Source: Phascolomyces articulosus
Lineage: Eukaryota > Mucoromycota > Mucoromycetes > Mucorales > Lichtheimiaceae
Length of the DNA: 64,000 nt
Assembly: GCA_025677815.1 (NCBI GenBank)
Contig: JAIXMP010000071.1
Coordinates: forward strand, 31,227 to 95,226
Reading direction: 5' to 3'
A model generated the notes under the pieces. The model was not told the DNA's origin. It saw nothing but the letters and a program-made list of their open reading frames with translations, and made no database searches. The position numbers were made by a program, and so were the translations under genes. Positions 1,644 to 49,646 of the stretch are shown here, in pieces; position 1 is the stretch's first letter; each line of letters opens with the position of its first letter.

Positions 1644-2056
1644 ACATAGAATATATATATATATTTAAAAAAAAGACAGCATAGACATATATATATATAT
1701 ATATATATGTATAAAAGAAATAGTATAATATATATATAATAGAATAGAAAAAAAAATCATTTGGTTGGTATATTTATATATTCTGTTTTTTTTTGCGTTG
1801 GATTTGTGATTGGGAAGTGTGTATGTATGTGTTTATTCTCTTTTTTTTCAACAGTGTGGTGTGAGGTTTTTTTTTTTTTTTTTGAAAGGAAAAAAAAATA
1901 CGTTTTATATATATATATGTATGTGTGTGTATTTTTTTTTAAAAAAAATAAGGGATTCAGGCATTACCTTCATTCGACAAAAGAGCATGACGATGATGGT
2001 CACCATTAGAAGTATTGGTTAAAGTAGGAAGATTATTATTCGAAGACGACGACGAC

Positions 2057-2091
<35 letters not shown>

Positions 2092-2832
2092 CTGTTGTTG
2101 AGACCTACCAGATACTACAGCTTCATCCTCAAGGGCATGAGCGGTAGCAGCAGCTGATAATGCCATAGACTTTCTCAACTGATCAAACAATTCATGCGTA
2201 GAATCCAACGATAATGAAGTAGCTGGGTCAGCGACGGCGATACTTGTAGGTTCTACACCAATCTTTTCCCTTTTCAAATCACGTTCAAGCGCGTCCAAGA
2301 ACAATCGATCATGAGGAACTGAAAACCAATAAAAGACTTTTTGTTTCTTTTGGGTTCGAATACAATTATTCTTGTAAAGCATATCCAAAAATTCGGATTT
2401 GGGTTCTTCCAAACAAGCATCATTTCCAGGTTTTAAATTACGTAGGTCAGAAAAGACGCCTTCTTCAAATTTCTTGAGATTACATACAGGTCGACCAAAT
2501 GCATGGAATCGAAAGACTAAACATCGAACAATATCTGTTCCTGTAATATGAAATAAATGATTCCAAAAGACACAAGACACACTTTCACCCGTGGGTAATG
2601 CAAAGGATTTGACGGCTCGTTCTGGATCCCAATCATTCGTGGCTGTTGCTAAGAAATATTTTAAATCGTCAATTTGAGTTAATCGGTCTTGTGTATCGTA
2701 GTTCGTGGGACGTGGTAGACTTAACATTGGTGTATCGTTGTTATTACTGTTGTTGTTGTTGTTGTTGTTATTGGTGGACGACGTGTTGTTACGACCACCG
2801 TGAGAGGTGGTCGACATAGTGATATTTGCCAT
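1..2832 (-). CDS. ste12: Ste12-family transcription factor, C-terminus cut by window edge
   Basis: DNA-binding regulator that acts in the nucleus downstream of the mating/filamentation MAP-kinase pathway in other fungi. Exon 1 is 2832..1968 and exon 2 is 1524..1 and continues off the window. The 443-bp intron (donor GTAATG, acceptor TGTAG) keeps frame in phase 1. Residues about 40-200 read as the STE homeodomain-like domain (for example [20 protein letters not shown] and [17 protein letters not shown]). Residues about 560-620 hold two C2H2 fingers ([19 protein letters not shown], then [17 protein letters not shown]), as in SteA-type proteins of filamentous fungi; budding yeast Ste12 lacks these fingers. 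A poly-Gln, Asp and His/Asn-rich tail follows. The Met at 2832 is chosen because upstream sequence is hydrophobic low-complexity. At least 796 residues are visible. Confidence 0.93.
1603..1640. repeat. (AG)19 microsatellite in the ste12 intron
   Basis: Thirty-eight bases of perfect AG repeat. In the ste12 transcript this is a CU tract about 80 bases upstream of the acceptor, followed on the far side by TA repeats (about 1689-1709), which helps explain the unusual intron length. Confidence 0.95.
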
Positions 2833-3795
2833 ATAATAATAGAGAAGTTTTTTTTTAATTCGTTTTTTTTTTTTTTTGGTGGTGGGTTTTTGTTTTTTTT
2901 TTGTTTTTGATAAAGTTGTTGTATTTAATAAATTGGTACTTAAATAAGCTATAATACAGATATATAAAAGAAGTAATTGAAAAGGTAAAAAAGAGAGAGA
3001 GAGAAAAAAGAAAAGAAAAGAAGAGAAGAAGAAAAAAAAAGGGGGGTGGAAAGAAAACGAAGTTGGATTAGAAAAAAAAAAGACCAAGTTTAATAAACAC
3101 AGAAAATATGCAATAGAAAATAAAAAGGAAACGAACCGACACACTATATACTCTCCCAACACATCTTTTTTTCATTCACGCCAAAATCTTTTCTATAATG
3201 AGATACCCAACCTGGGGTCGACTGCTCTCTCTCTCTCTCTCTCTCTCTTTATTACTTCATAGTGTAGTAACAGTGTAAGTTTATATTCATCATCTAGTTA
3301 TAAAAAATTAAGCTCCCTTTTTTTTTTGGGCGGTAAAAAATAAACCTATAAATTCCAAAAAAAGGAGAGCATTTTTTTTTTGGGGGAGAGGGAGGAAGGA
3401 AGATGTAAGATGGATGATGGGTGAAAGAGTGGGGTATTAAGGAGATATATTTATATATATATATATATATATAAAGGGGGGGGAGGAGGGAGGAAGTGGA
3501 TGGATGATGAGTGTGTGTGTTGGGATTTTTTTTTCTAACAGGGTAAAAACTTAGCAACTCTATCATTTATTATGTCACTTAGCAACAATAATTCAAGTAA
3601 CATCCATAATATATATTTTATTATGTAACCTTAGCAACAACAACATTTATTATATTAACTTGTCTTTTTTTTTTCTTTTGTTAAAAAAAAAGGGAGTTTG
3701 GAAGAGGGACCCCACAATTATAAGTGAAAAAGAAAAAGGTTTGCTGTTTTTGGTATCATGCATGTAGGATGATAAGTCTATAAATCTCATCTCAG

Positions 3796-13677: not shown

Positions 13678-14302
13678 TAATAAAATAGCATTTCAATTCA
13701 TCCTTTCATCACCATGATAAAAAAAAAGGGGTCCTTCTCTATTAATAATATACGATGGTTACATTGGTATATTAGCTTACCGGATATATATTATTATTCA
13801 CACACACACACACATACACTTGTAGTATTATAATAAGCAACAGGGACCTTTTCTCTCTCTTTCTCTCTCTCTGTTACAAAACAATCTTTTTTTTTAAGGT
13901 TTCTCAAACAGAATTACATAACCCTATGTATTAGGTCGGACAATGCATTTTTTTTTATCATGTTTAAACTTCCGACGTGTTATATAATCAAGGTGCAACC
14001 GCGGGATTGGATGGAAAACCTTAGCAAAAAGGAAGCTAAAACTAGCAAAAATATATAAAAAAGAAAAGGGGAAAATACAACGCAACCTTTTTTTTTTTTC
14101 ATTATATTTCAACTAGACTACCACACACAGGAGAGGAAAAGAAAAAACAAAACCTATACCTCTTCTTTTATATACACTATCTCTCTCTCTCTCTCTCTCT
14201 TTTTTTTTTATATACATACAAAGAAGTATTCCCTCCCCCACCTATATCTATTATCAAACGAATCTATAAATATATCAACAAAAAAAATAACAACACATCA
14301 TT
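13678..14302. promoter_or_regulatory. GAL7 upstream region
   Basis: A 625-bp gap that serves as 3' flank of the Zn2Cys6 gene and promoter of GAL7. It contains (CA)n at 13800-13813, CT tracts at 13852-13872 and 14181-14200, and an A-rich leader (AACAAAAAAAATAACAAC) directly before the ATG. No CGG-N-CCG-type zinc-cluster site was noticed by eye. Confidence 0.45.
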
Positions 14303-15450
<1,148 letters not shown>

Positions 15451-18933: not shown

Positions 18934-18941
18934 TTTAAGTT
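18934..18941. repeat. Target-site duplication, left copy
   Basis: TTTAAGTT immediately before the left inverted repeat. The same eight bases follow the right inverted repeat at 25554-25561. Eight to eleven bases is the usual range for Mutator-like elements. Confidence 0.85.
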
Positions 18942-19118
18942 GAGAATTACTACACGCGTAGGCTTCATTCGAAGTCAGATAGGTTATTATTCGAAGCCAG
19001 ACTACACGCGTAGGTTACACACCAGTCATCTTAGGACCAACCTACGTGCAACCTACGCGTGTAGTCTGACTTCAAATACTATACAACTTGTGCGACCTGT
19101 CATACTACATGCGTGGTC
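18942..19118 (+). repeat. MULE left terminal inverted repeat
   Basis: 177 bp. Pairs with 25398-25553. The motif CTACACGCGTAGG occurs at 18950-18962 and 19002-19014, inverted at 19052-19064, and degenerate at 19105-19116. It carries 21 bp absent from the right repeat, a partial duplication of the CGAAGTCAGA segment. Confidence 0.92.
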
Positions 19119-20354
19119 AGACTCCAGTTTAATAAATGATAAAGAAAAAAAAAACCCTTATAATGCAAATCTGATTTACCTCATACATTGTTACATAAAT
19201 TTGTGAAAATCAATAAATTACACAACGGGCACTTCTATTTTAAAATATCATAATGACATAGTGTTTTATCTAGTAGGAACATTTGCATAACACAATATTA
19301 TTAGAGGAATGATCAACATTTTCATTAAATTACACATCTTATACATCTACATATGAACAGTTGCTAGTGATAATCAATCAAACACTGATGTCGATTACTA
19401 TTATTATGGAAATTCCATGAATGCACATATAGATCATTTATATTGCGATATAATTATGTTATTGTCAAGGAAGCACATATATACAGATCATTAAAATATA
19501 CATAACCTTGCATAATTGGGATGGTATATACAACTCTATCAAGATCTTAAAATTATACAGTTTTTAAATAAAATGAGTACAAGCTATAATAGTTACTTAC
19601 TGATAGTAATGCTTATTATAGATATTAATATGTTAACTCACATATATAATGAAACAAAACAGTTGTAAGCAAATGCAGCTTATTAGCTATTATACATATA
19701 TATATTGATGATGTATAGATTTGTGCTATTTAATGAATTCTTACAAAATATGTTTGTAAGGTATATAAGCGAAGTAGTAAATATATGGTGCCTGTAAAAC
19801 ATTGCTCAGCACACAAATTTGCTAACATATAATGGAGGTTGATGGTCGACATTCCCATTAATATGTTTTTTTTTTGGTCTCTATATACAATCTCATGCTT
19901 AATCGTGCATATGATTTGTCATCTTTAGTACTCCATAGATACACATGTCAATCAACAAAATATATGTATAATTTTATGCCGTGTTCATAATCTGCATTTC
20001 GATTTTAAACATTTTTTTTCTAACATTATATACAACCACATGTTCGGCTAGCATGTGCATGATATAATATTCTAAATATTACTTGGTCACATATGTTGTT
20101 GATCATTGACTTTATGGGCTACCTATTATTGCAATTATGCACAGCATGATATGATATACACGGTGCATCTCATTTAAAGCAGATCAGCACTTGAATATGA
20201 TTAATACTTTAGTCAAGTAATACTTGGTCTTACAGGAACAACTTTTTTACGTATTTAAGTCTTGATTTGATGAGTATATAAATAAAGTTGGTTGAAACAT
20301 CAAAAAATATTATCACTACATTTTTTTTGTTATAACTACAACATTACCTATATC

Positions 20355-23300
20355 ATGTCATTATTATTTCCACAATCTCTTGAAGATATCCTTAACAAGA
20401 CGGATTACAAAACCAAAGATGAAGCATTCGCAATTGTTCAGAACTACGCGGCCAGAGTAGGCTTTTCCGTCATTAAGTCTAATAGTGGTATTTCTTATTG
20501 TACCTTTGAATGCTGCCATGCTGGATTACCACGAGCGGGCTCAAGTAATAAGGATGAAGGTAAAAGAAATAAAGGAAAATGTGTCATATGAAGGAAATAT
20601 TTTTATTTCTATTCAAATAAACAGATATTTTTTGTGTTAGCACTATATTAAATATGCTGTTTACATCTTATATAGATCCTACAGTGAAGACATACAAAGA
20701 TAAAAACGGTATTGAGAAAAAAAAGCCGACTCGTAAATCAAGAAAGACTGGCTGTACTTGGAAAATCAATATTTCATGCAGCGATACCAATAACAACCGA
20801 TGGAAATTTTCAACAATGTTATCTGACATCCCAGAGCATAACCATAATATGAGCATGAATCCTTTGATATACCATGAGCACCGTGATAAAGATGTATACG
20901 AACGCCAAAATATTATTAGTCAACTAGAAGCAGGTATTGCCCCAGGACAGATTATGAAGCAACAACGTGTGAATCTGCCACCACCATCAGTAGCAACAGC
21001 ACTACCAACTCAAATTCCAGGACTTGCTTCTCAATCTTTCTTTGGACAACCATTACCATATCCACCTACTCCAGTTATTACACCTATCTATGTTGCTGCA
21101 CCAATGTATGTCACTGCACCAACAACAATAACTCAACAACCAAGATATATAGGTCACCACAATATGATTCCAAAAGATTTATATAACATTGGGCAAAAAA
21201 TTCGTAAAAATCAAAATAACCGCGGTAATTATCAAGAAATGTATTTAATTACGACCTTTTTGGAACGACATGGATATATATATCGTTATGATACCGACAG
21301 CACTAAAAATCTCACCAAGTCTATTTTTACAACACATACAACATGTATTGAAAAGGCACGACGATTTCCTGAAGTTATTGTGATCGACTGTACATATCGC
21401 AGCAATCGAAACATGATGCCCTTACTCAATATTTTAGGTGTCAGCAACTTGGGTGCAGAAAATTACCGTAGTGACAAATTACGTTCATATTATATTGGAA
21501 GTGCTGTGATGTCAGACGAAAAAGCATTATCGTATGATTGGGTGGTTGAAAAATTGGCGCAAGTCGTCTGGGCTCCTGAAAGCGGTTCTACACCAAAGCT
21601 TTTTGTTACTGATGGTGATAGTGCATTAGCAAGTTCATTGCATAAACATTTTCCTGGTGTTCCGCATATCTTGTGTGTATGGCATATCAAGAAAAATTTT
21701 TGCAAGAAGGTGATGCAGCATGTAGATCGAGAAGAGTTGAAGGAGGAATACGAAGCAATTATTGAAACAATCGACAGGTTGTTATGGTCAAGAACAATCG
21801 ATAAATTTGAAGATGCTATCGGTGACTATAAGAAAGAAGTAAAAAGAACATGTGGTAGTAATAAAGTTGGGGGAGCGGATATCATTAGATATCTTGAAGA
21901 AGAGTAAGTAAAAAAAAAAAGTATAATATACCTTTATTTGATTATATAACACAGTAGTGATAGTTAAAAAAATGGTGTTTAACATATTAATCTAAATCTA
22001 CATTTGACATTTTATTATAGAATGCTTCCATTCAAAGAACGCTGGGCTGGTCCCTGGGTAGAGTCTTACATCCATTTAGGTGCAAGATCCACGCAGAGAG
22101 CTGAAGGTTTTCATGCGAATCTAAAGAAAATAATTGATCGCCCTGGTCGGATGCTACATACATTTGAAAGTATACATGAATACCTTAATAATGCTGTAAG
22201 TAATAAATAAAATTAAGAAAAAGTGTAGATATTTCAAAAGAATAGTCATATAACCTTTCAGAGTACTCTAATACATGAATAATACTATATAAATTTATTA
22301 CAATTTATAGGATTTTAAAGAAGATATACAACAGAATCGCGAATGTCAACTTACGTGGATAATCGAAGATAAAGCCACACCAAATGATAACCGTCTCAGG
22401 AAACAGATTGGACACCTACAAGGTACCATATGCCACTTTGCTCTATACAAGACATTGGGAGAGATTCAAGCTTCTCGGTACATGAATGAAGACATGTTGC
22501 TGGAATGTGGTATATTTTGCGAAGCAAAAACGAATTATAACTTACCTTGTCGTCATGTGTTATACCAATTCTTGGATAAACCTCTGGACCCTGAATTATA
22601 TCATGAACGATGGTGGCTAACACAACCGACAGGTAATAAATTTTAAATGACAGTTTATTATGTACTCTATTTTTTTTTAAAAAAAAAACAGAACTATTTA
22701 GACTAATTTTATTTTTCTGGTTGATGTATATGATATAATAGACAATATCCTCAAGGGATCACTTACTGAAGATATAGGAAATATTGATACTATTGCTGGC
22801 ACTGATGATGATCTACAAACATTTAATCGGTATCAAGAAATGAAAGAAAGAATTGTTACAACATACATGTCATGTCAAAATAACCAACAGCGTCAAGATT
22901 TAATTACAGCAGTTAATTCTGCATTGAAAAAATTCTCCCCTGTTCCTGTTGAAAACCTTGTTTTACCCAAATCTGTCAAAACTAAAGGCCGTCCTCCAAA
23001 AAAATCGATTGGTTCAAGAATACCTTCGGGCTGGGAACAACTTGAGGAAGAAGCAAAGGAGAAACAGAAGCTTAAAGAAAAAGAAGCCAAGCAATTGAAA
23101 GAAAAGAAACCCCTTTCACCTTCAAACAAACCTCTCATCCCCCATCGAAACAAGCGACCGAAGAAGGATGAACCAAATATGAATGATGAACTACTCAAGA
23201 ATGATAAGAGTACAATGTAAGTAAACAAAATATATAAATAATTACTATCAAGATACGAAATATAAATTGATTATATAATATATATTTGTATAACTAATAA

Positions 23301-24982
23301 TATTTATAATATTCAATATATATATATTTCTACAACTTTAGCATTTTACACCGAGATATTCCTTTGGAAAACACAATTGAAGCAGTCGAAATTATAGATG
23401 ATGGATGGTGTGGCTTTCGTACTTTAGCTTACATTATTCACAAGGACCAAGACAAGTATTTGGATATTAAGGAAAAAATGTATTCATATGTCAAGGAAAA
23501 TGAAGACCTCTGTTATACGTATGTTTGCCAAGGACATGCTACTGTATTTAATGACTTGCTTAAACGGTTGGCATATGGTATTGTACCTAGGTTACGAACT
23601 CGCTCTGTCTGCTACAAGGAATATTGGTTTGATGCAGCTCAAGATGCTCAAATTGCAGCAAACGCTTTCAGTATACCTATCGCTGTTTATTCTGATGGTA
23701 GTGTTCATGAATCAATACTTTATCTTCCATATGACTTACCTGATGGACAGCCCTTACCAGAAATTATGCATTTTGTTAATGGCAATCACTTTCAAACCAT
23801 CAAGACAAAACGGTTTCCACGAATGACTTGGCCTCCTATTCTCCCTCAACCCATGGCAATCTGGGAATCTCGTGGTCGGGATCAAAGTGAATACAAGGCA
23901 GCTTGGAAGTACATACATAGAAAGAAGTATCCCAAAATTACAAGCACAAATGGATCTTCCAAGCAACCGATTGTTATAGAAGATGATGATGACAAAGCCT
24001 CTAGTAAAGATAAAGTTTTGGAAGAACTAAGAGAAAAGTTAAAGACAATTGAAGCCATACCAGTTGAACGAGGTACGTACATTATAATAGAGTAAAAAAA
24101 ATACCAAAGCATAACCTTTTTGAATTATTTTTTAATCTTTAATATTTATAATATTTTACCGTAAATATGAATAGTCATATATCCATGCCCGTTCTGTGGA
24201 ACTTCACTTGGTGACCCTATGCCAGAGGCTATCAAGAAAGTGTACGACGAATACGTCCAAAAAAATGAACAGTATCGGAAGGATAGAGAGAAGGAAGCTG
24301 TAGATAAAGATACCCGATTTATTCAAATTCGCACAATAACTCGAGACCTACAATTGACGTTCCAGGAACAAATGAATTTTTGCCAAGTCCATAAGATTGA
24401 ATTGATTTACAAGCCAGAGGCTATTGAAAAAGGCTATCCACAAGATATAAACTTCAGGGCATTGCCAGAGCGAATCTTGCCACATCTGGAAACACTTGTT
24501 GAAATTGCCAAAGGAAAGCTTTACAGTCCTTTTCGTGATAATGAGGAAGCCTTTTTTAAGGAAAATAAAAGATTCGTAAAAAGAAGTGTCATGGCAAGAA
24601 TGTCTCGTATGGAAATGTATACGGTAATTATATTTGATATTGTTATAAGTACTACTTTCTCTAGCTTGTTTTATATATATAAATTAATGTAACAATGTTA
24701 TAATTTTTTTAGAGCGGATATTATGGAATACGAGGTAGAGATGTTATGTTACGAGTCCTACAACGTGAGTTACTCTTTACAAAGAAGATAGCAAGTAAAG
24801 ATACAAAACCATTGGACGAAATCACATTCATACAGACTATCCTTGTACCCGAATGTAGTATTCTCCTAATCCAGCAAGATTTGGATATATCATATTCTGA
24901 AGCATATGAAATCCTAATTGGCAGTCATAAGTATGGCAATTATACATATAATGATGTTGTGGATGAGGACTATGATGATTAA
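20355..24982 (+). CDS. MULE transposase fused to OTU protease and RTC4-like domains
   Basis: Eight exons: 20355-20559, 20676-21903, 22021-22195, 22311-22632, 22742-23216, 23342-24072, 24175-24623 and 24713-24982. All seven junctions keep phase, giving 1,284 residues. Residues 1-130 are FAR1/WRKY-GCM1-like (Cys/His, EHNHNM). The MULE DDE core has D306 (VIVIDCTYRS), D381 (FVTDGDSALA, CVWHIKKN) and E506 (STQRAEGFH). A SWIM-type finger follows (C602, C606, C616, H618). Residues about 700-800 are Lys/Pro-rich. An OTU-like cysteine protease follows with D822/C825 (DDGWCGFRTLAY), YWFDAAQDAQIAANAF and H951 (VNGNHF). Residues 1045-1284 read as a CPFC pair plus an RTC4-like domain (NFCQVHKIELIYKPEAIEKG, SGYYGIRG, TFIQTILVPECSILLIQQDL). 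The transposase is certain. OTU is very likely; RTC4-like is likely from motif order. Confidence 0.92.
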
Positions 24983-25397
24983 AATGATGCATCCTTGAGT
25001 AATATCATAGTAATTATAATAAGATTATAATTATTTTCTCTCTTTCTTTCCCACCTCTCTTCCCATTTCTTCTTCTTCTTTTTTTTTATTACTTTTTCTC
25101 TTTTCGATATTTCTTCCATTTTTTCTTCTCTTTATATCTGTCACCAATCCCATTAGTACTATTTTATTTTTAATGATGTACATTGACATCTTTTTATATG
25201 TAATGGAAAAACTTACAATATATAAATATTCTTTAAAAAAAATACTTTTATGTATCTTTTTCTTCTTTTATGTAGTTAAATGATCGTTATTTTTGATATT
25301 TATTTTGTATTAGTTTTCGTTGCAACTATATATCTTCTAATATTTCTGACTTAATTGTAAATGGGAGAGACAACATACACAGTAAGATTGAGAGTGG

Positions 25398-25553
25398 GAC
25401 CATGCGTGTAGTATGACAGGTGGCACAAGTTGTATAATATTTGAAGTCAGACTACACGCGTAGGTTGCACATAGGTTGGTCCTAAGATGACTAGTATGTA
25501 ACCTACGCGTGTAGTCTGACTTCGAATAATAACCTACGCGTGTAGTAATTCTC
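25398..25553 (-). repeat. MULE right terminal inverted repeat
   Basis: 156 bp, reverse complement of the left repeat with a handful of mismatches and without its extra 21 bp. Ends in CTACGCGTGTAGTAATTCTC against the duplicated TTTAAGTT. Confidence 0.92.
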
Positions 25554-25960
25554 TTTAAGTTTTGTAGATCCTCATAAGTTTTCTAAATGTCAGTTACAAG
25601 TAAAATAAATTATCCCATCGTTAATATCCAATTCAAATAAACAAATGATTTATATAAAAAGTCAATACTTACTATTGAGTTTCACCAGGGTCTGATAAAA
25701 CTCTATATTCTCTTCTACTACAACGCCAGACGGTAATGTCCTCTTTGTATTACCTATGTTTTTGTTAAGTGTTTTTTCCATCCGATCGATAAGGGATGTT
25801 GATGAAGTAGCAGTAGGTATTATAGATTGCGCAGCAGTATATGAGGTTGCTGCAATAGGCGGGATCAGAGTAAGCAGCAGGCCGCGCCGACGCAGTGGGA
25901 GTGGTGAGGAGATTCAATTTCTTTCGTCTTCAACTTAATCTCATACCAATCAATTTCACC
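25554..25960 (-). pseudogene. Upstream part of the gene split by the MULE
   Basis: Reading minus from about 25,880: an open stretch with SLIDRMEKTLNKNIGNTKRT and LPSGVVVEENIEFYQTLVKL, then a consensus donor (AATA/GTAAGT), a roughly 105-bp intron with a CTGAC branch-like box and a TTTAG acceptor. The next exon runs into the MULE end, and joining across the element (one target duplication removed) leaves the frame open for about 46 codons. The intron phase does not join perfectly, so the gene was already damaged or my exon boundary is off by one. Confidence 0.45.
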
Positions 25961-27734: not shown

Positions 27735-28669
27735 TACTCGTGCAAAAAAAAAAAAGAAAAAAAAGAACTTACCGTGCAAAAAAGCAACGAGAATAGCCGA
27801 AGAAGAAAAAGAAAAAGAAAAAAAATACTTTTGTGATCAATTCACACTGACAGCTTGTATTTCAGTTATGGGTTTGACCAGTTTCAGTGATGTGCAGTCT
27901 CATAAAAAAACAAAACAACAATGTGTATATCTGGATAAACATCTAGAGTAGCATCAACTCTAATATAGCAAGGACCTGCTGTTCCCACTTTAGCAAAAAC
28001 TCACTTTCTGCAACAGATTTTAGGATATTCCTCTGTTGCAAAAACCGAGGGGTGGGTTTAACGGTAACAACAGTAGTCTGACGAAACAAGTCAATACACT
28101 ATTCACAATGAAAGAAATTCATAATAAAACTGAATATTCCTAAAGTACCACTCTAGCTACCTCCAAGAATAGATTTTTAAAAAAAAGTGAATCCTCATAA
28201 AAATATGACAAAGATGGCTCTCCTATTTGATTGTATCATTGTAATAGGATCATTATCCGTTTTCTTGTACATTGTGCGTTTTATATTCTTACAAGCGATT
28301 ATTAAAATCAATAAAATGGATATCCATGGGATGGTTTTGTGAATCATAAAAAAAAACCATAAAAGTGGAATCTCTGTGGTGGTTTAAGGAAGATGTCCCC
28401 TAATCTTTTTAACTGGAAAATGTTAATCCGTTTATTTCACCAAGCACTTATCTTTTTTTTTTTGTAGAATATCAGGGACTTGTCATTTTATTTTTACTCA
28501 CGATTGAATCATTTTCATTGGGTCTTTATTACTAATCTTCCAGTCAGTATGAATACAATCAAATTTATGCACTCAATATAAAAAGAAGACAGCCATTTTA
28601 TTTTTCAAGTCTTTATTTTTATTTATTTATTTTACCTTTCAAACTTCCAAACAGAATATATACATAACT

Positions 28670-29557
28670 ATGGCCCGTTTTATTCCTTACTCTGTCGCCA
28701 TGGTGACCCCATTTACCAAAGCTGGTAATCTAGATGTTGCCAATGTTCCTGCCGTCGTCAAGTATTATTTGAATCACAACATTCCGGGATTACTCGTGAG
28801 TGGAACCACAGGGGAACAACATTGTATGACCATTGCCGAACGAAAAGAATTATATCGATTGGTCGCTGAAACCACGGCCGGGACCGGATGCCAACTCTAT
28901 GCAGGTGTTGCTGCTTTCAAGACCGAAGACGCCAAAGAATTAGCAGCCGCTGCCAAGGAAGCTGGATTTTCTGGTATTATGCTTGGCTTCCCTCCCTATC
29001 GTATCCCCTCTCAAAGAGAAGCTGAAGTCTATGTCCAACAAGTCGCTTCTGCTGCTAAAGAATTACCTATTTTCCTTTACAATAATCCACGCCGCAATGG
29101 ATTCAATGTGGAACCTGAAACGTTTGCTCGTATTGTGAAGACAGTGGATAATGTCTATGGTCAAAAAGAAGCAGGCTTTCCAGAAAATGTCAAGAAAATG
29201 AAGACATTGGTGGATCCAGGTCTTCTCGATCAATACAGTTTCTTTTCTGGTTCTGATTCTTCGTTTATCGATGCGTTCACCAAATATGGTTATACAGGTC
29301 TTACTTCCATTGCTGGTAATGTCTATCCAGATCAAGTCAAAGCCATTGTGGATCATTTACAAAAAAATCAAGTGCAGCAAGCGGAATCGATCATGGCATC
29401 GATTGCTCCTGGTATCAAACTTTTGGAACAAGCGGGAATAATTCAGTCCGTCAAGTATTTATTACGTAAAAAGAATGTTCCTATTGGCTACTGTCCTCCT
29501 CCCATCTTGGATGTCAGCGATGAAATGAAAGAAGCATTAGATAAAGAATTTTCTTGA
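28670..29557 (+). CDS. Dihydrodipicolinate synthase-family lyase/aldolase (295 aa)
   Basis: Class I, Schiff-base aldolase of the DapA/N-acetylneuraminate-lyase superfamily, intronless and of full family length. The catalytic features are visible: SGTTGE with T46/T47, Y110 (GFPPYRIPS), Y137 in FLYNNPRRNG, and the Schiff-base lysine K166 in YGQKEAGF. Fungi make lysine by the aminoadipate route, so a true DapA role is unlikely. Fungal relatives act on keto-sugar acids, 4-hydroxy-2-oxoglutarate or similar 2-keto acids, and the substrate cannot be chosen here. The local GC content is higher than in the flanks. It converges with the acetyltransferase gene 152 bp away. Confidence 0.92.
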   Translation: MARFIPYSVAMVTPFTKAGNLDVANVPAVVKYYLNHNIPGLLVSGTTGEQHCMTIAERKELYRLVAETTAGTGCQLYAGVAAFKTEDAKELAAAAKEAGFSGIMLGFPPYRIPSQREAEVYVQQVASAAKELPIFLYNNPRRNGFNVEPETFARIVKTVDNVYGQKEAGFPENVKKMKTLVDPGLLDQYSFFSGSDSSFIDAFTKYGYTGLTSIAGNVYPDQVKAIVDHLQKNQVQQAESIMASIAPGIKLLEQAGIIQSVKYLLRKKNVPIGYCPPPILDVSDEMKEALDKEFS

Positions 29558-33369: not shown

Positions 33370-35418
33370 TTAGTATCTTCGTTGTTGATCTTCTTCTACT
33401 TTACTATCTTCAGGGAGTGGAGCAATGGATTCCGTTTCACCTGCCAATTCTTCAAGGGTCTTACCCTTGGTTTCAGGAATAAGGAATGAGGAAAAGATAC
33501 CAGTCAGCATGAAAAATGCAAATATTTGAAGCAAATGGTCGATCCATGCATTATCACCACCAATATCTTTCAAAAGACCAAAACCAACTTGAGCCACAAT
33601 GGCACCAACTTTGCCTGAAGCAGCAGAGATACCATGAGCTGTAGAACGATAACGGGTGGGGAAACATTCACCAGGAACAATAAATGTGGTAGCGTTGGGA
33701 CCCTAATGATTCAATGGAAAATTCTGTGAGACTTTTTGTTTTCTTTTTTTTTTCCTCCTTAGGAAGGAGCTTCATAGTAAGATGGTTTTTTTTTAAAAAA
33801 AAATACTTACGAAATTGAAAAAGATTTGAGTCAAGGTATACAAGACAATGAACAAAGGAACAGAGTATCCGAGAATGGCATGATAACCGAAACCAAGAAT
33901 GACAAAGAAAATGGTGAGCATACAGAAACCCATGATTTGAATAGTCTTACGACCAATGTAATCGACAGTGAAGACAGTGATCCAGTAACCAGGAACTAAA
34001 GAATATTGAATATGAGTTTAACAAAATAGATCGAAAACAAAGAATAAAGTGTCTTTTTTTTTTAAAAAGGTACTCACCAGAACCAAGCAAATTGATAATG
34101 ATGTTACCAACACAAGTACGGAATACAGCACTATTGTATTACAAAAAAAAAGAATGAGTATTTCGTATTGATAAAGAACTTTTATCTATGAATCATCTTT
34201 TTTTAAAAAAAAGGTTGTAAACTTACGTGTATGGGTCATCACCACCAGCAAAACCAATATTCTTCAAAATAATGGAATTGTTCAAACCAAGACCATACCA
34301 GGCAACGTCCAGCGCGAACCAGGAATAAGCGGTACCAAACAATACTGTTGCATTTCTTCGTTGACCAAAGAAGCGCCAGAAATCAGCCCATGAAGCTTTA
34401 GCAATAGCAGGATTATCACTACGAGCGACAGCAACATTATCACTATAATCACCAGCAGCAGCACCATGTTCAATGAAAGCCTTGGCATCACGAATACCCT
34501 TTTCAATCTTTTGTTCGACATCCATAGTATAACGAGGAGTTTCAGGAATGGTCAAACGATAATACAAGGCAATACAACCGGGGATAGCACCAACACCCAC
34601 AACGACACGCCAAACATAATCCAAATTTTCAGGATTGCTATGAATAGCATTTTGAGCAGCAGCAGTGGCAATCAAACCGACCAAACTGGCGGCGACTTGA
34701 CCAAAGCCTTGCATAGCAAAGACAGCAGCCATCATGGCACCACGACGTTTGGTAGTAGCGAATTCAGCAGTAATGACAGAGGATAAAGGATAATCACCAC
34801 CGATACCAATACCCACAATGATACGCCAAAAGGTAATGACGGCCCAGAAGGAGGAAGCAGGACCATTACCAGCTAATGTTTGACCGACAGTACCGACAAT
34901 CATGATCATCAATTCAATACCGTACATACGTTTACGACCCAATCGATCGGCTAACCAGCCAAATAAAAGTTGACCCACGACAGTACCCACAGAACAAGAG
35001 ACTTTGATAGCAGTATCAACACCATGAGGGGTTTTGTTGCCTTCGGCTCCCCAATAAACGTAACCAATCATGGTGGATACCAAGTTGATGGCAAAGATAT
35101 CGTAGGCATCAGTAAAGAAACCAATACCAGATACAATACATGCACGTACATGGAACCAGCCAAATTTTGCATCATCAAACTAATTAAAATATATAGAGTG
35201 CGCGCGTTAAAAAAAATAATCGTGTAGTTAGGAAGAGGGGAAGAGGAACGAGTGGAGAATGCATATATTTTTTTTTCATGCGTAAAGGTAACAAGAAAGT
35301 TTAATTTTTATTTTCAAGGTACCTCTTCCAACGCCACTCGACGACGGTCGATAGCTTCTAATCCATAATTTTCTTCATAATGATCATCATGGGAAAGATC
35401 ATTGACGGGTTTCGTCAT
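33370..35418 (-). CDS. High-affinity inorganic phosphate transporter, PHO84-type (539 aa)
   Basis: Plasma-membrane H+/phosphate symporter of the major facilitator superfamily (PHS family). Exons: 35418-35323, 35179-34227, 34130-34078, 33995-33811 and 33702-33370, all in phase. Signature segments: AKFGWFHVRACIVSGIGFFT with DAYDIFAINLV (helix 1), FGWLADRLGRKRMYG (MFS loop 2-3), GIGIGGDYPLSSVITAEFAT (phosphate-transporter signature), VWRVVVGVGAIPG, IPETPRYTMDVE, a central cytosolic loop, DVAWYGLGLNNS, and FFNFGPNATTFIVPGECFPT in helices 10-11, ending in ETKGKTLEELAGE. The length is normal for the family. Expression is probably phosphate-starvation controlled as in other fungi. One CACGTG lies near 36,363, about 0.9 kb upstream, which is too far to weigh. 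Confidence 0.96.
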
Positions 35419-38400: not shown

Positions 38401-38930
38401 ATAGGAAAATAATCAAGTCATTTATTTTTTGTTAGGTAAAAGGTACAAATTGTCGGTTTCTAAAAAATGATTAAAAGAAGAAAAAGTCGTTTTTAACCTA
38501 TAATAGTACCTCGGGTCACCAACACCCTACCGGGCGGATAATATATACTGTGTATTTGCGCAGGAGACAACAGTATTTTCAGGTTACATATATTGTAAGG
38601 TGCAGTCAGCATCAGTAGTAGGTAACCTTATCGTTGCTTGATTCTAACTTTTATGGAACACAGTGTTTCTTGCATTAATTATGGTTCAAATACTACAACA
38701 TGAGTTCCGATAAATGGTGCGCTGATCATTTTTACAATGTACATTGCTAGTAATCCATTGTAGAACTATGGATGCTATTCGATTGTTTTTCATGATTGTT
38801 ATATCATCCCTATTAAAACCTCCACCATATTTGTTATCATCCAGAAATAATTCGTCTTTGTAAACATGGTGAAAAAATATATATTCCAATCAAACAACAA
38901 GAATAACAATAGACTTCGAATTTCCAACTT
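35419..38930. other. 3.5-kb intergenic region, no gene recognised
   Basis: AT-rich DNA between the phosphate permease promoter and the palindrome. It holds GA repeats (35518-35543), A/T homopolymers and short TA repeats. The open frames are short and have no recognisable motif. Confidence 0.5.
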
Positions 38931-39427
38931 CATCGGAAAACCTGACGATGGCAATATTTTTGAATAAAGGTTATAAGCAATGAAAGATAGTCATTTATAG
39001 AAGAATATAGACAATAACAATCAATATTATAGAATATAGGCCTATATAGGCAAATATTTGTAAATAAAGTTTTAGCTGTAACACATAAATGGAACTATAA
39101 GGGAATGTGGTACAATATTTATATGCTTTGTTACGAAGGTGAAATGATTCCATGTTCTCTTATATAAATTATTCCTTTGTACTTTCGTTGTATTATGTCC
39201 TAATTCATAATATGATATCCAATACCTTCTTTTTTACCTTAGCTTGTTGATAGATAATCATTTTATTTAAAGCAAATAATTATTTAACAGCTACATAAAA
39301 TATGGTAATACATTAGGCAAAAAAAAAAAAAAAATTCCAGTGGACCCTTCAACCTCTGAGCTGGTGGAACATCAATTCTATCTTATATAGTCATACTATT
39401 ATTCAGAGTCATTTTTTCAAATATATT

Positions 39428-42400
39428 CTAGTCTTCTTCACCTTCATTATATTCATAGGAATTACTATCGCTATCATCATCATTTATATCACTATTAATA
39501 CTTTCATCACTACTACTGCTGTCATCGTCATGCTCGCTCTCTTCTTCAATCTCTTCATTGTTGGTGCTGAGGATTTCACCCCATTTAATTCTTCGAGCTT
39601 CTGTTAACATGGGTAGTATTCCTCGTCCTTTAAACCAATTGTAACGGCTAACGTCATGATTGATCAGAAACCTTTGATATATGGTAAAGTCATTATACCG
39701 TCTGGAATTTCCAACTTTTGATTGGAAATCAGGCACAAAATGAATAGGAAAGTCAATCGATGAAGCTTCAATTACTAAAAGATTGTTTTCATTTTTATAA
39801 TTCCCGTTGTCGTTGTAATTCTCGTTGTTAGCTTCTTGACGTATAAATACTTCCAGTCCACTGTTATGTTCTTCAACAACGGCTACATAAGGACGAACAA
39901 CACATGCTGAAATTTCTCGGTCATTACACATAGTAGTAAAAAATAAACGGAATTGAACAACAGTACGATCATTGAGAATTGCGAAGTCGTTTCGTTCTAC
40001 ACCGTGAAAGTTGGTATGCGATCTGAGTATATCTGTAGTAACATCGCCATCTTCATCATATGTGTTTAAATATAAGCTACGGTATGCTCTTATCTATACA
40101 AAGTTAAATTGTATATTTGGTTGAGGAGTAGAACTAATATCATCGATTATTGATATCCATTACATATAAAGTGGTAATATGGACCCTTATATAATTTCTA
40201 TACCTTTTGTTGTTGTGTTGCATTAATATTGTTGTCTGATTCAAATATATTGGAAATATAGTCTGAAACTATTTGTTGAACATCAACCAAAGTGGAGTCA
40301 ATTGTGTTAAGCTCACTAACATATATATATCTTCGCTTGAGGGGAGAAAAAAAAGTTATTCGTTCGTTGTTTATGGGTTTACAATTGATGTTAGCAGGAG
40401 GTTTTGAATATTGATCCCAGAATAAGTCACGTCGCTCTACATATTTCACAACCTATTTATTAAAATATTATATATAATGGTAAATCAATTGTTTTGTTTC
40501 GTCTTTTTATAAAGTCGTTAATAATAAAGGAGCAGGAGCACTTACTTGAGATATCATTCCAACATGAAAATTAGTTTTGCGACTTGGTTTCTTCGCGTCT
40601 GTTCGGTGCTGTCTCTCTGAATGGTTTGTGCTATATCCACAAATAATGCCATGACTCCGAATATCGCTTATATACTTTCGAAGCATATGATTTTTAGGGA
40701 AATTGAGTTTTCGCTGTATAATATTCATATATTATTAAGTGGAAAGGATTAGTGGCAATGAAGCTATTATTACTAAAAAATAGATATTGTAGACAGTTTT
40801 ACACATTACATACGTTTGTTAATTTTTGTAGTGCTGGACTATAGTAATTGAACCAGTCTAATGATTCATTCATCCACAGTAAAGTTTGGTCTGTATGTTC
40901 CTTAGCTGTAGCTTGGTTGAAGAAGTCAATGAAATGACGGACGCATAAAGAAACTTGTAATGGAACTAAGTCGTGAATAATAGCAAGAAGTATCTTTCAA
41001 TTATAATTAAAAAATACATGTTCATAAGTATATTAACTCCTTTTTAAGTATATCGTAATAAAGTTTGTTGCTATAAATCCTTACACTCATATGGCTTTTC
41101 ATTTCAGTAAAAGTCGGATTTTTCAGATTATTAATAAGGTATACAGTTTTGAAACATTTTAAATTTCTAAATTTTGGGAGTGCTGCTGCTCTGTTATTGT
41201 ATCCTTTGTTAGCATAAGATTATTGGTTCGTTTATTTTAAGGTTAATATAATAGTATATTACCTGCGGTTTACTTCATCTACTTTCCGTTTTTGTTTTAT
41301 AATATCTTCAATGCATCGTAAAATATACTGGTAAACGCCATTTAGCTGGTGAACATCATCACATAAAATTTTTGAATAAGGATCATTGAAGTTTTTGACA
41401 TCCCAGAATGCATTCTGTATAATATTATAATAATATAAACATTATATACTTGGCTCCTATTCAACTGTTTTGTATTTTAAACTCTCCTTTTTAAATATGT
41501 ACCTTGACAATATTAACGGATTTTTCTTTTGCATAGGCTAAAGCAGCAGCTTCACCATCATTTTCTATTATAGCACGTGCAGTTTCATATTCTCGTTTCA
41601 TCAGTTCAGGCGTACGTAACTGGTATTCGTAGTCATCTTCTTTTGGATTACCAAAGTCAACTGTTTTTTCAAAACAACGTGGGTATGAATTTGGGGAGTT
41701 GCCAGAACGGATGTTTGTCAAAAGACGTCTATAATATAATAGTAAATATCATATTAACATAGAAGCACTATAAATGTAATTATATAAAATATCGGTATGT
41801 ATAACAATTATTATTACTGCTCTGGTAAATCTGCAGAATAACTTGCGAGAGCGGGAATGCAATGAAATAGTCTGTTGTACGGCCCTTTCAATATACTATA
41901 GTAAGGTAAATATGTAAACTAAATGTTAAAAATGGGAAGAAAATTTACTTATTATACATTTCTAGTTACCATCCATTTTCCAATGCTGCAAATGGCTTGA
42001 GAATAATTTCCATACAATGATGAAATACAGCCTGTTTTGCAGTGGCCCACCATGTTGGAGGGGTTTTCCCAGGGTATTTGATAATTGGCATATATGCTAA
42101 TGGACGGCTTGCATGCGCTTCTTTTTTTTCCCTTAATTCCATGGGTACATTGCTCAATTTCATATAAAGAGGCCATAATGTGTGTCTTCCATTTGAACAA
42201 ACCAGTGTCATATCTGATGCCAACATTATGCCAAGAACCACTGAACCGCGAGGAGAATTTAACTAACAAATCATAATATATGTTCAATTAACAGTCAATA
42301 TTGGTAAATAACATATATGTGTTCATATCACACAAGTAATTTAAAATGATAGCTACCTGCATATTTTCAAACCATGTACCTGTATGTATATCTCTATATA

Positions 42401-43722
42401 TACGCTCACCATTACGAAACTGCTTTTCTGCTTGTAAAATCATTGTGTCCCAGAAAGCTCTATGACTAAAGAGATGCTCTGCTAAATCTTTAATATCTCT
42501 ATAATATAACTTTATCTTTCCAGCCTTTTCTTTGAATTCTTCTTTGTGATGATCCAAAATATCAGGTATATTATCTACATCAATAGCAATTTCCTCGAAC
42601 TAATAATAGCAATATAAAAGTTAAGTAAACATGTGCAGTATAATATATTATTATTTGATTGGGTGACTACATACTGGTTGGCACAAATTTTTTCTTTCAT
42701 CGTCGTATATAACCTTACTAAGTGCCTTGACAGTGCCAATGTTATTGAATTTCAAGAGTTCCCCCTTTGAAAGAGTCTCCTTTGATATTTCCTTGGCTAT
42801 TTCAAAGAATCTTAAAAAGTATGATGACCTCATTAATAATTTAGTCACCGATTTATATAGTCATAAACAAAAACATGAAACAAAGCTCTGTATATACTCT
42901 TTATAATTTGCGTTCGATAATTCCGAGTTTAATGCAAACTCTGCCATGCGATATTCAATATTATTTAATTTCCCCATGGTTGAATATGCATCCTGTACAT
43001 CTCTTTCATTAGGTCGGGGAGGGATAGCTTTTGGTGCTATTCCTATAGGCACTATTGATTTAATATATAGTCAATACAATAAATTTTATGTACTCAAGAT
43101 CAAAGCTATATATAGTAGGGATACTCAAACGTCTCTACATATTTGAACGTCCTTAGTAACCATAGTAATTAAGAATATGTAACAAATTTACCAGTGCTGA
43201 CAGCATCCCTGTTGTTGTTGAAAAACATGTTGTTGATGTAATTCTCTCGTTCAACATTACTAGCCATATTTTCTGTCAGTATGTTCATTGTACGAGTACC
43301 ATCATGAGTAGAATTATCATCGTGATTTTCATCGCTCCAATAATCTTCAAAAGTCACATCATTTTCATCTTGATGATGCAGTGTAGTAGTGGCATCACTA
43401 TTATGATCAACATCCATATCTTGATCAATAATCAGTTGATTATATAAGATATTCTATATAATAATAGAGCGTTATTTATTAAATTTTTAGGAAGTAATTA
43501 AGTTTATAAAAAAAGATATGGTACCTGATTACTGTCATGAACATTCTGCTGATGCTGCACAATGTTGGAATGTTGGCATATTTGATCTTCCATTGCATCT
43601 TCATTTTCGCAGGAATGCTTAGCGGCTTTATGTTGCTTTAATCCACCAGAGGTAAATGGCGCAAGCCGTGTACATTCGTCCTCTTCACAATAGTAAATTC
43701 TTCTCTTTTGAGATCTTGACAT
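39428..43722 (-). CDS. Plavaka-like transposase, left copy (open as far as read)
   Basis: Multi-exon gene; the first exons are 43722-43525 and 43453-43192, and the third starts at 43051. The N-terminus has a C2H2-like finger (YYCEEDECTRLAPFTSGGLK, then QHKAAKH), then an acidic region. The core reads as the Plavaka transposase family of fungi: VVLGIMLASDMTLVCSNGRH, TLWPLYMKLSNVPMELREKK, LFHCIPALASYSADLPEQRL, NAFWDVKNFNDPYSKILCDD and VHQLNGVYQYILRCIEDI. The middle has SSYFLRFFEIAKEISKETLS. The C-terminus is rich in Ser/Asp/Glu and stops at 39428. I found no stop inside the recognised exons, though I did not fix every intron (the junction near 42,860 is unresolved). The right copy is broken. Confidence 0.75.
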
Positions 43723-43905
43723 CGTAAGCTGGTTGTTACGTTCTTAAGTTTTAAGTTTCGTGTTGGTTTTTTTTAATGAGGCTGGTAGACTATAGAAGTT
43801 ACCCAAATTAGTTTCGGGTGCATGAAAGCCTAATTTTATTTCTTTTTTCCGCCCACAATTGCTGCGCATATTCATTTTGCAACTAACGTTACCACAATTT
43901 TTAAA
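43723..43905. promoter_or_regulatory. Divergent promoter of the transposon gene pair (left copy)
   Basis: 183 bp between the outward transposase start (43722) and the inward companion start (43906). An identical copy lies at 49464-49646. It has a T-rich run and GGGCGG-like and GCGCA motifs of unknown meaning. Confidence 0.5.
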
Positions 43906-46445
43906 ATGTCAAAAAAAGTAGAAAGGAGAAATGCGAAAAGCAACTCACATCTTGTATTAGGAGATAATAGAGGTTGAATGGATTGATTCGAAAATTATTC
44001 AATTAAGACATTTTCTAATTTTAACATCTTGCATTGCTTTTTTTTTAATCATAGGGGGCATTTTGACACGAAGACAAATACGTGACAATGAAAATGAAGA
44101 GAGTGAAAGTTCCCGAAGACAAACACGTAATTCTATGTTTAAAACAATAACTCAAATTATGGAAGATACCAAAGATAGCTAATCTAAGTGTTCGTAACGG
44201 TTTAGCAAGACAGAGGCTTTCTCGTAATGAAAATGAATCGTATGTTGTTGTTCCAAACTAAAACTATCTATGCTGCGCAAAATACTAAACTATTATTTTA
44301 GATTACCACAAGCTCGTAAGAAGCGTCGAATGAAGCAAACAACAAATCAGGAGTCTTCATCTTCGGATATGTAAGTATTTGTTGGTACTTTATTAAAATG
44401 TATTACAACTGTGATTCTGTTATTGATGGTTTATTTTTATAGCTCTGATCTTGACATTAGTGAATTTATCAAGGATGTAGGCGGAAAAAAACAACTACTG
44501 GCATTGTTAAGTGCTCATAAAAATACGGGAAGAATGTAAGTAATTATATATTAAATTGTTAACTAATGAAAGCAGATTGATGTTGTTATAATGACAGCTC
44601 TCGGTGCTTATGGATTTATTAAAAATTAACCGTTGTAATAGAAACGAAAATGAAGAACCTGATTTGGAGTCTCACTATGACGAAGAATCAGTTCACAGTT
44701 CACAAGATGAACAAGATGAACAAGGTGATCGTGTAGAGAATAGTTCTTTCCACGACGAAAACCATGAGAATCAAACAAGAAGGTATAATGAATTCCATAT
44801 TGAGAAATTTGTTTTACGGTATCAATGTAATATTATTAATGGCATACATCAATCATAGTAGCTTGGATAATGATGGTATGATAAATGAATAGTAAGTATA
44901 ATAATTTATCATTATAAGTATAGAATATAGTTAGAGAATACATGCAATTAAAAGAAGAATCTGCTTATATTTTTTCTATTTACTTCAGTGACGAACAAGA
45001 ACAAGTTGTACAGCCCTCTTTTCATAACTCTGGACGTTTCTATGATGCCCCATCTCCTCTCATCCAAGATTCTAGTCGATATCTTAGTAACGAGATCTCT
45101 CAATCACTTGTTTACCACCAATTCCATGAAAACAATGACCCGATACAGCAGACATCCAATTCGCAACATCAAGAAACAAGACAGAATGATGATTATTATA
45201 CACCTTCTTCTGAACCATATAATTCTAATTCAAGGTAATTGACAACATGTATAACGGTCATAGTTCCAGTTTTTTACAATTAGTAAAACTTATAACAAAA
45301 TATTTGAAACTAATTGCCAATGTCTATTACAGCGAGAGACAGAGTGTCGCGAGACAGTATGTTGCACATTTATGACTAATACACCATCTATTATCAACTT
45401 GATACAATACAATTCTTAACTATATTATTATCATTGTTTCTTCTTCCCAACTTATAGAATTGTACTGCGTTATAAGGATACACAATTTGAACGATATGCG
45501 CGTGCAGCATCAAAATGGATCTATATGCATGATGGATTTCCTGATGAAGATTCTGCATACGATGGTTCACTTTCTGCATTAAAAGAAATAAACAATATTT
45601 CTGTCTCAGATATGAATGATATTTATGTTCCTGATCAAACTATTGTCAAAAATGTAAGTAGTTCTTTTGCTTGAAGTAATTTTTGTATACAACCTTTGCC
45701 AATTTACTTTTTAGCTTACTTTTTTATATACATTAATCAGTTCCTTTCACTTGTTCGTAAAAGACGTGGCACATGTCACAAACAAGTAGAGACTTGGATC
45801 CGTAAGTATGCTTTCCCTGTCGACTCTTTTGAATCCCTTCCGTCCGATGCAGCCAAAGATATAAGAAATGTATACAAATATTTGCTTGAAAATATGCGGT
45901 ATGTAATACAACGTCTTTAATTTTTTTATATTTAATAATTTTATCAGATTGTTGGTGTTAATCATCTTCATTCTTTAATGATTTTCATATGTAGATTTGG
46001 TCGGGAAAACTATGAGAAGGATGGTCGATTGTTGTTGAATAATTGCTTGGTTGATTGTCTGAAATACGTCATGCTCAATAACACATCATCTTCTTCACGC
46101 CTTGGAAGAATTGAAAGTGTCACACGGCCACTTATAGCAATAATTTTTTCAATGGTAAATCAGATTATATACGTAGACTTATTTATATTGATCAAAATTC
46201 TTATTTAGTTATATATATATACTCATACGTAGATATATTACCACTTGGCCAAACTATCCAATCATCCTTCATATACGGAAGCCAAGGTTAAAGATTTTAC
46301 AGAGGGGTCCCCATGGTATAATATTTACAAAGGATTGATGAATCCAAATACACTCTTGGGCCGTGAAATTTACTGGAACCAAACCATTGTTTTTTTTAAT
46401 AACAAATGTATTGATGATGATCAGTCGGATGGTAATGCATCCTAA
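43906..46445 (+). CDS. Transposon companion protein, left copy, last codons lost
   Basis: Not assigned to a named family. Exons: 43906-43972, 44055-44126, 44179-44239, 44302-44370, 44443-44535, 44598-44782, 44859-44891, 44989-45234, 45333-45356, 45458-45653, 45741-45898, 45995-46154 and 46233-46445. All junctions keep phase except the one before 44598. The N-terminal half is charged and disordered (Arg/Asn/Glu, acidic Ser/Gln). The globular part starts at VLRYKDTQFERYARAASKWI. It continues through FLSLVRKRRGTCHKQVETWI, RFGRENYEKDGRLLLNNCLV, IESVTRPLIAIIFSM and HLAKLSNHPSYTEAKVKDFT. The pattern of a conserved helical domain beside a transposase recalls DUF6532-like fungal proteins, but this is a weak comparison. 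The left copy ends DDQSDGNAS; the right copy ends GNGWSLERLMAGI, so the left one was truncated at the palindrome spacer. Confidence 0.6.
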
Positions 46446-49463: not shown

Positions 49464-49646
49464 TTTAAAAATTGTGGTAACGTTAGTTGCAAAATGAATA
49501 TGCGCAGCAATTGTGGGCGGAAAAAAGAAATAAAATTAGGCTTTCATGCACCCGAAACTAATTTGGGTAACTTCTATAGTCTACCAGCCTCATTAAAAAA
49601 AACCAACACGAAACTTAAAACTTAAGAACGTAACAACCAGCTTACG

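What the first reader, a model, noticed from the sequence alone, without database searches (positions are those of the whole stretch)
20355..24982. MULE transposase carrying OTU protease and RTC4-like domains in one reading frame
Seven introns, all in matching phase, join a MULE catalytic core and SWIM finger to an OTU-like domain with apparent D/C/H catalytic residues (D822, C825, H951). A C-terminal CPFC plus RTC4-like domain follows. RTC4-like domains are known from fungal host proteins, including budding yeast Rtc4, linked to telomere capping. Ulp1-type proteases are known in some plant MULEs. I know of no described element that combines transposase, OTU and RTC4. A transposon that trims ubiquitin and contacts chromatin ends or repair factors would be a new strategy for protecting transposase or choosing targets.
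Basis: partly seen in the sequence, partly recalled or inferred. Interest (0 to 1): 0.88.

Follow-up and report, generated by a model that had tools for sequence, protein, structure and literature searches.

The report
Fungal transposon with captured RTC4 gene
A jumping gene in a mould carries, in one protein, its own DNA-moving enzyme, a domain of the ubiquitin-cutting kind and a module resembling a host telomere-linked gene (RTC4), apparently copied with its introns; what the two added parts do is not yet known.

Summary
Eight exons (20355-24982) encode one 1,284-aa protein inside a complete Mutator-like (MULE) transposon, 18942-25553, with terminal inverted repeats and an 8-bp target duplication. 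MULE and RTC4 exceed Pfam cut-offs. Pfam finds no OTU in the window's protein, but exon 6 alone ranks OTUD5 first among solved structures (E 0.0055) and a nine-row profile reaches 6e-12; D822, C825 and H951 are invariant in 9 of 9 rows. The genome is very probably Phascolomyces articulosus. MULE-OTU-RTC4 order recurs in three diverged lineages there; overlapping Circinella minor proteins cover it too. New here: the RTC4 module resembles a stand-alone gene of the same genome and shares both its introns in position and phase, suggesting capture of host genomic DNA. Selection is purifying (omega 0.23 against copy C46). OTU also occurs in MULEs without RTC4. Ubiquitin cleavage and any telomere or repair role are inferred, not shown; the structure model failed (mean pLDDT 35).

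The parts
18942..25553 (+). complete MULE transposon, 6,612 bp
   Evidence: terminal inverted repeats and flanking 8-bp repeat
18934..18941 (+). left target-site duplication TTTAAGTT
25554..25561 (+). right target-site duplication TTTAAGTT
18942..19124 (+). left terminal inverted repeat (outer 21 nt perfect; inner 145 nt 93% complementary)
   Evidence: a 184-base query from here (18942-19125) has 37 matches in the genome, the window's own included
25392..25553 (-). right terminal inverted repeat
20355..20559 (+). exon 1
20676..21903 (+). exon 2, with part of a weak FAR1-like region and the MULE domain
21374..21697 (+). MULE domain (aa 302-409); D306 and D381, with E506 in exon 3, lie in motifs of the DDE triad (assignment recalled)
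   Evidence: PF10551 3.6e-20; positions
22021..22195 (+). exon 3 (holds E506)
22311..22632 (+). exon 4, SWIM-like C602/C606/C616/H618
   Evidence: no Pfam SWIM match
22742..23216 (+). exon 5, charged linker
   Evidence: omega 0.20 against C46
23342..24072 (+). exon 6, OTU domain (aa 803-about 975) and acidic linker
23400..23411 (+). OTU D822-G-W-C825 motif
23787..23789 (+). OTU H951
24073..24174 (+). intron 6, phase 1; split codon lies four residues before the C of CPFC; same place and phase in host RTC4-type gene
24175..24623 (+). exon 7, CxxC (from C1050) and CxxH (in FCQVH from F1114) plus start of RTC4
24624..24712 (+). intron 7, phase 0, one codon before GYYG; same place and phase in host RTC4-type gene
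24713..24982 (+). exon 8, rest of RTC4 domain (Pfam aa 1159-1272) and stop

Best explanation
This is an autonomous-type MULE transposon whose single transposase gene has been lengthened in two steps. First an OTU-type cysteine protease domain was joined behind the transposase core; this appears older, since other MULEs of the genome have it. Later the last two exons, with both introns, of a host RTC4-type gene were captured behind it. Shown: one frame, TIRs and an 8-bp target duplication, several copies, the order kept in three diverged lineages, catalytic-type residues kept, purifying selection, shared introns with a host-type gene. Inferred: the transposase core binds and moves DNA; the OTU domain removes ubiquitin from the transposase or from host factors at the break, so that the complex is not degraded or signalled away; the zinc-binding-type RTC4 module docks the complex onto the host partner that Rtc4 contacts, at chromatin or DNA ends, or competes with Rtc4 for it.
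For: Frame and domains. TIR and TSD; copy C35 has its own 8-bp TSD TATTTAAA. Near-identical copy C71: 1 mismatch and 5 gap openings over 5,680 aligned columns. OTU by sequence and profile to OTUD5, OTUD1, A20. Order kept in C71 and C35, in C46 and C78, and across Circinella minor P0001 (MULE to OTU) and P0007 (linker, partial OTU, RTC4). Host-type gene at C15 (471 aa in my model, no MULE or OTU match within the stretch fetched): 90 of 268 aligned residues identical, score 315 against a maximum of 68 in 200 shuffles; both introns coincide. Omega against C46: MULE core 0.16, OTU 0.23, CPFC region 0.26, whole gene 0.23. RTC4-bearing MULEs plus C. minor P0001 fall together at 94/91.
Against: No enzyme, binding or transcript data. 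No Pfam OTU hit in the window's protein. Structure model useless (mean pLDDT 35). RTC4 omega against C46 not computable because dS is saturated. Of six copies with both ends in hand a target duplication was found in two (window, C35) and not in C71, C45, C15 or C28. Annotated RTC4 proteins of this species lack the MULE part (P0005, P0006). The 94/91 group is under the program's 95/80 star, and 0 of 200 bootstrap trees explain the RTC4 label by one change, because P0001 (cut short) was scored as lacking it. The direction of capture rests on one host-type gene.
Confidence: 0.6

Rival explanations
1. The OTU-RTC4 part is a second gene lying inside the same transposon, transcribed apart from the transposase; the joined frame is a gene-model accident.
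For: NCBI/UniRef entries P0005-P0009 are OTU/RTC4 proteins without a MULE domain.
Against: C. minor P0001 was annotated by others as MULE joined to OTU. Intron 5, which makes the join, has its splice signals at the same place in C46.
Confidence: 0.15
2. Passenger capture as in Pack-MULEs: OTU and RTC4 travel along without use.
For: MULEs take up host fragments, most of them without function (PMC13317346 passages); several copies are broken by stops or frame changes, with omega up to 0.82 in the OTU of C68.
Against: Omega 0.23 for OTU and 0.26 for the CPFC region against C46 at dS 0.8 and 1.15; D/C/H invariant in 9 of 9 rows; order kept in three lineages and two genera.
Confidence: 0.1
3. The OTU-fold protease acts on the transposase protein itself, cutting it into transposase and RTC4 pieces, as some viral OTU-fold proteases cut polyproteins (recalled).
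For: The acidic linker behind the OTU is the least conserved stretch (omega 0.47 for aa 976-1045).
Against: The linker before the OTU is well conserved (omega 0.20). The best-scoring solved relatives by sequence are cellular deubiquitinases. No cleavage site was identified.
Confidence: 0.1
4. The reverse direction: the stand-alone RTC4-type gene is a domesticated piece of such a transposon.
For: Shared introns give no direction by themselves.
Against: RTC4 is a host gene of budding yeast (PMC6162548 passages), while among the MULEs placed in the tree RTC4 was found in one group only; the C15 gene has no MULE or OTU match in its fetched stretch.
Confidence: 0.1

Closest known systems
Plant MULEs with a transduplicated Ulp1 domain (Kaonashi/KIU, Vandal)
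   Same: MULEs carrying a captured protease domain of the ubiquitin-like system, conserved in eudicots, precise function unknown (PMC13317346 passages)
   Different: Ulp1 there, non-TIR elements, in one of three genes of the element; here OTU in the transposase frame, TIR element, and a further RTC4 module
Ginger1 DNA transposons
   Same: Transposase with C-terminal OTU or Ulp1 domain (PMC2836005 abstract and passages)
   Different: Gypsy-integrase-like transposase, listed from animals; RTC4 is not mentioned in the passages seen
MULE-Mucorales and other MULE groups
   Same: MULE with SWIM in Mucoromycota (PMC6446971, one table passage seen)
   Different: Listed there with 10-bp TSD and no further motifs; the words OTU, Ulp1, peptidase, protease and RTC4 have 0 occurrences in that main text; here TSD 8 bp
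Host RTC4-type gene at G000:C15 (L001, PF14474 6e-17)
   Same: CPFC...FCxxH...RTC4 module and both introns
   Different: Own N-terminal region; no transposase or OTU
OTUD5, OTUD1 and A20 deubiquitinases
   Same: Best solved relatives of the OTU profile
   Different: Identity not measured here; activity of the transposon domain untested

Membership tests
MULE (Mutator-like) transposon | MULE transposase domain | tested here: met
   PF10551 72.7 bits, cut-off 27.6
MULE (Mutator-like) transposon | terminal inverted repeats | tested here: met
MULE (Mutator-like) transposon | target duplication of about 8-11 bp (range recalled; values of 8 to 11 bp also stand in the table passage of PMC6446971) | tested here: met
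   8 bp in window and C35; not found in C71, C45, C15 and C28
MULE (Mutator-like) transposon | SWIM or other zinc finger | tested here: inconclusive
   C602-x3-C606-x9-C616-x-H618; no Pfam SWIM at E up to 1
MULE (Mutator-like) transposon | FAR1-type N-terminal DNA-binding domain | tested here: inconclusive
   26.6 bits against 28.1 cut-off
OTU cysteine protease | Pfam OTU model over cut-off | tested here: not met
   no match for the window; relatives C64 3.9e-4 and C27 7.4e-4, both under the cut-off. Read as a limit of the model's reach, given the next row
OTU cysteine protease | sequence similarity to solved OTU domains | tested here: met
   single query OTUD5 0.0055; profiles 3.1e-5 and 6.2e-12
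OTU cysteine protease | catalytic D/C/H residues | tested here: met
   D822, C825, H951 invariant in 9 of 9 rows
OTU cysteine protease | OTU fold | tested here: inconclusive
   model mean pLDDT 35; no fold search made
OTU cysteine protease | ubiquitin cleavage | not testable with these tools
   needs enzyme
RTC4-like | PF14474 over cut-off | tested here: met
   65.8 bits, cut-off 23.7
RTC4-like | role in telomere capping | not testable with these tools
   genetic link in yeast only (PMC6162548 passages)

The most novel reading that the evidence does not exclude
A transposon has built a host-control cassette into its transposase: a working deubiquitinase plus a stolen, intron-bearing Rtc4 module that brings it to the cell's own DNA-end machinery, so that breaks made by transposition escape or steer the host response. 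Expanded RTC4 families in other fungi (45 in a rust, PMC9370660 passages) would then be partly transposon-borne.
Probability: 0.3. Interest if true: 0.85.

Novelty: new variant of a known kind. Interest (0 to 1): 0.62.

Why it matters
Protease domains of the ubiquitin system have been noted in transposons without a settled purpose (PMC2836005 and PMC13317346 passages). Here one is joined to a module traceable to a host-type gene in the same genome, which names a candidate pathway (Rtc4, DNA ends) and gives a clean test by point mutation. It also warns that annotated fungal 'RTC4' proteins can be transposon pieces: of 13 PF14474 matches in this genome, 1 looks like a host gene (C15), 7 lie with OTU and MULE parts or with this element's TIRs (C80, C71, C35, C13, C45, C46, C78), and 5 were not assigned (C70, C32, C67, C44, C1).

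Tried and rejected
AlphaFold of exon 6 on six rows: mean pLDDT 35, so no fold search was made. Pfam OTU on the window's own exon: none at E up to 10. The RTC4 module against PDB sequences: 9 hits at E up to 10, best Lrs4 9.5e-4 in the charged stretch, taken as coiled-coil chance. The idea that the whole gene is a domesticated host gene: rejected because of copies, TIRs and TSD. The idea that C46 lost its RTC4: rejected; a stretch with 118-nt inverted ends, 96% alike, lies within its exon 7. Protein database searches: 1 hit of 5,630 candidates for aa 801-1284 at full-protein length, 4 of 7,997 scored for the whole protein, 6 of 6,566 for the 482-aa part; this search needs shared 5-residue words, so distant fungal relatives can be missed. 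Literature: no paper with RTC4 plus transposase plus fungal; none with both 'RTC4-like' and 'mule'; no RTC4 in the 3 papers; none with 'RTC4-like domain', 'RTC4 domain' or PF14474; none with OTU cysteine protease, MULE and transposon; none; 1 for Mutator-like, OTU, cysteine protease and transposase (Ginger). This covers only the held open-licence library. PMC5751038 is not held.

Rows dropped: the MULE tree used 25 of the 29 matches (C51, two C38 pieces and C20 left out as short or split) plus four proteins. The OTU alignment A2 used 9 of the rows (31 matches), picked by eye as different from each other; broken copies were not among them. Most loci reach only about 1.5 kb beyond each match, so 'no RTC4' in other OTU-MULEs means none within that reach.
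Full report
What is there. Eight exons, 20355-24982 on the plus strand, joined at GT-AG introns, give one 1,284-aa protein. Pfam finds MULE (3.6e-20) and RTC4 (5.1e-18) over their cut-offs and FAR1 just under its cut-off. The gene lies in a 6,612-bp element, 18942-25553, with inverted repeats whose outer 21 bases are perfectly paired, flanked by the repeat TTTAAGTT. Copy C35 has its own 8-bp repeat TATTTAAA; four further copies with both ends in hand (C71, C45, C15, C28) show none. Motif positions of the usual DDE triad are D306, D381 and E506 (positions; assignment recalled). The SWIM finger is only partly canonical and is not called by Pfam.

Whose genome. G000 has 47.4 Mb in 110 contigs. 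Its contigs C71 (129,568 bp) and C35 (617,795 bp) have the lengths of the contigs of P0005 and P0006, both named Phascolomyces articulosus. That species is in Lichtheimiaceae, Mucorales.

The OTU domain. Pfam misses it in the window. The exon alone ranks two OTUD5 sequences first and second among PDB sequences, E 0.0055 and 0.0063. A four-row close alignment improves this to 3.1e-5. A nine-row alignment of OTU rows of the genome gives 6.2e-12 for OTUD5; its best 17 of 23 hits are OTU-type enzymes or chains named as viral RNA polymerase, which I take for viral OTU domains. Relatives C64 and C27 match Pfam OTU at 3.9e-4 and 7.4e-4, under its cut-off. D822, C825 and H951 are invariant in 9 of 9 rows.

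Conservation of the order. In the own genome 13 places match RTC4, 31 match the OTU query and 29 match MULE. MULE, OTU and RTC4 lie in order in the window element, C71 and C35. C68 has MULE and OTU, with a piece of RTC4 seen only with a home-made profile; C13 has OTU and RTC4, its MULE part was not found or not fetched. C46 (64% in the OTU exon) has the same order, but an inserted stretch with inverted ends at 220407-220523 and 225015-225132 interrupts its exon 7. C78 (45% over the OTU part aligned) keeps SWIM region, linker, OTU, CPFC and RTC4 in line. C45 is a 940-bp derivative with both termini and only the RTC4 end. In Circinella minor P0001 joins MULE to OTU and ends before the histidine, and P0007 joins linker, part of OTU and RTC4; no single C. 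minor protein found holds all.

Splicing and selection. In C46 the splice signals of introns 2, 3, 4, 5 and 7 lie at the corresponding places (intron 2 donor three bases off in the alignment), intron 6 keeps only the acceptor column, and intron 1 is unclear. Exons are 58-81% identical and introns 52-67%. Against C46 omega is 0.16 for the MULE core, 0.23 for OTU, 0.26 for the CPFC region, 0.20 and 0.47 for the linkers before and behind the OTU, 0.40 for the N-terminal part and 0.23 overall. For RTC4 dS is saturated; dN is 0.31. Against closer copies omega is higher: 0.45 overall for C35, 0.36 for the part of C13, 0.51 and 0.70 for the two parts of C68; for RTC4 alone 0.34, 0.18 and 0.55 on 7, 16 and 10 changes. 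Stops were skipped in these counts: 2, 5, 11 and 9 for C35, C13 and the two C68 parts, 3 for C46. C71 and C35 share a shorter A run in the OTU exon that C13, C68, C46 and the window do not have; since C71 is otherwise 99.9% identical to the window over the part compared, this is unexplained.

Origin of the RTC4 part. L001 (C15) holds a 471-aa stand-alone protein by my gene model, without MULE or OTU matches in the stretch fetched; its RTC4 end scores 6e-17 in Pfam. Its C-terminal part aligns to the transposon's with 90 of 268 residues identical, score 315 against at most 68 in 200 shuffles. Its first intron splits, after the first base, the codon four residues before the C of CPFC. The transposon's intron 6 does the same. 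Its second intron lies between codons, one codon before GYYG, as does the transposon's intron 7. A rough chance for one such coincidence in 239 codons is 1 in 700, for both about 1 in some hundred thousand (my estimate). Both also share CxxC and CxxH, which look like a zinc site (inference). Capture of genomic DNA from a host gene is the simplest reading; the host splice sites are read from sequence, without transcripts.

When. Other OTU-bearing MULEs of the genome (C64, C95, C100, C40, C18) show no RTC4 within about 1.5 kb. The RTC4-bearing MULEs and C. minor P0001 form one group at 94/91, just under the program's 95/80 mark, with unresolved forks inside and a long C78 branch. The label test asks for two changes, and 0 of 200 bootstrap trees need only one, because P0001, which is cut short, was scored as lacking RTC4. 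One gain in the ancestor of this group is the simplest reading but is not proven.

How it may work. Shown: architecture, mobility marks, selection. Inferred: transposase activity, ubiquitin cleavage, and a docking role for RTC4. Ginger's authors proposed that OTU and Ulp1 domains may act on repair factors during transposition (PMC2836005 passage). Rtc4 is linked to telomere maintenance genetically but its function is unclear (PMC6162548 passage). The joint model is that the OTU protects the complex from ubiquitin signals while RTC4 places it with host end-binding partners.

Novelty. Ulp1 domains in MULEs and OTU in other DNA transposons are known. MULE plus OTU plus RTC4 was not found in the searches made, which cover one open library. 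I file it as a new variant of a known kind.

Noticed in passing
window 38924-54436: Very large inverted repeat (arms about 7.7 kb in several pieces, 95-100% complementary, 488 nt between the inner arms), towards the end of contig C80; real palindrome or assembly artefact.
   Followed up: no
window 57311-60901: Second inverted-repeat element with a DDE_Tnp_4 reading frame at 59330-60028 minus, Harbinger-like by recall.
   Followed up: no
window 62032-63601: Inverted repeats of 164 nt, 90%, 1.2 kb apart: small element.
   Followed up: no
L038-L043 (C1, C15, C28, C29, C32, C37): Six copies with equal scores of another OTU-type reading frame ('DGNCGWRAAS'), not next to a found MULE core; its element type is unknown.
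   Followed up: partly
L006 (C45:910898-911837): Short element with both termini whose inside is the RTC4 end of the transposase gene; a possible source of falsely annotated RTC4 genes.
   Followed up: partly
window 23342-24072 against C71 and C35: C71 is 99.9% identical to the window yet shares a length change in the OTU exon with the more distant C35, and it lacks a target duplication: conversion, recombination or sequencing error.
   Followed up: partly
window 1957-3171, 14291-15265, 28553-29557, 34223-35179: Host genes around: STE-like transcription factor, galactose-1-phosphate uridylyltransferase, DHDPS family, sugar transporter.
   Followed up: no
PMC9370660: A rust fungus has 45 annotated RTC4 proteins, discussed there as DNA-damage response; transposon origin was not considered in the passages seen.
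   Followed up: no
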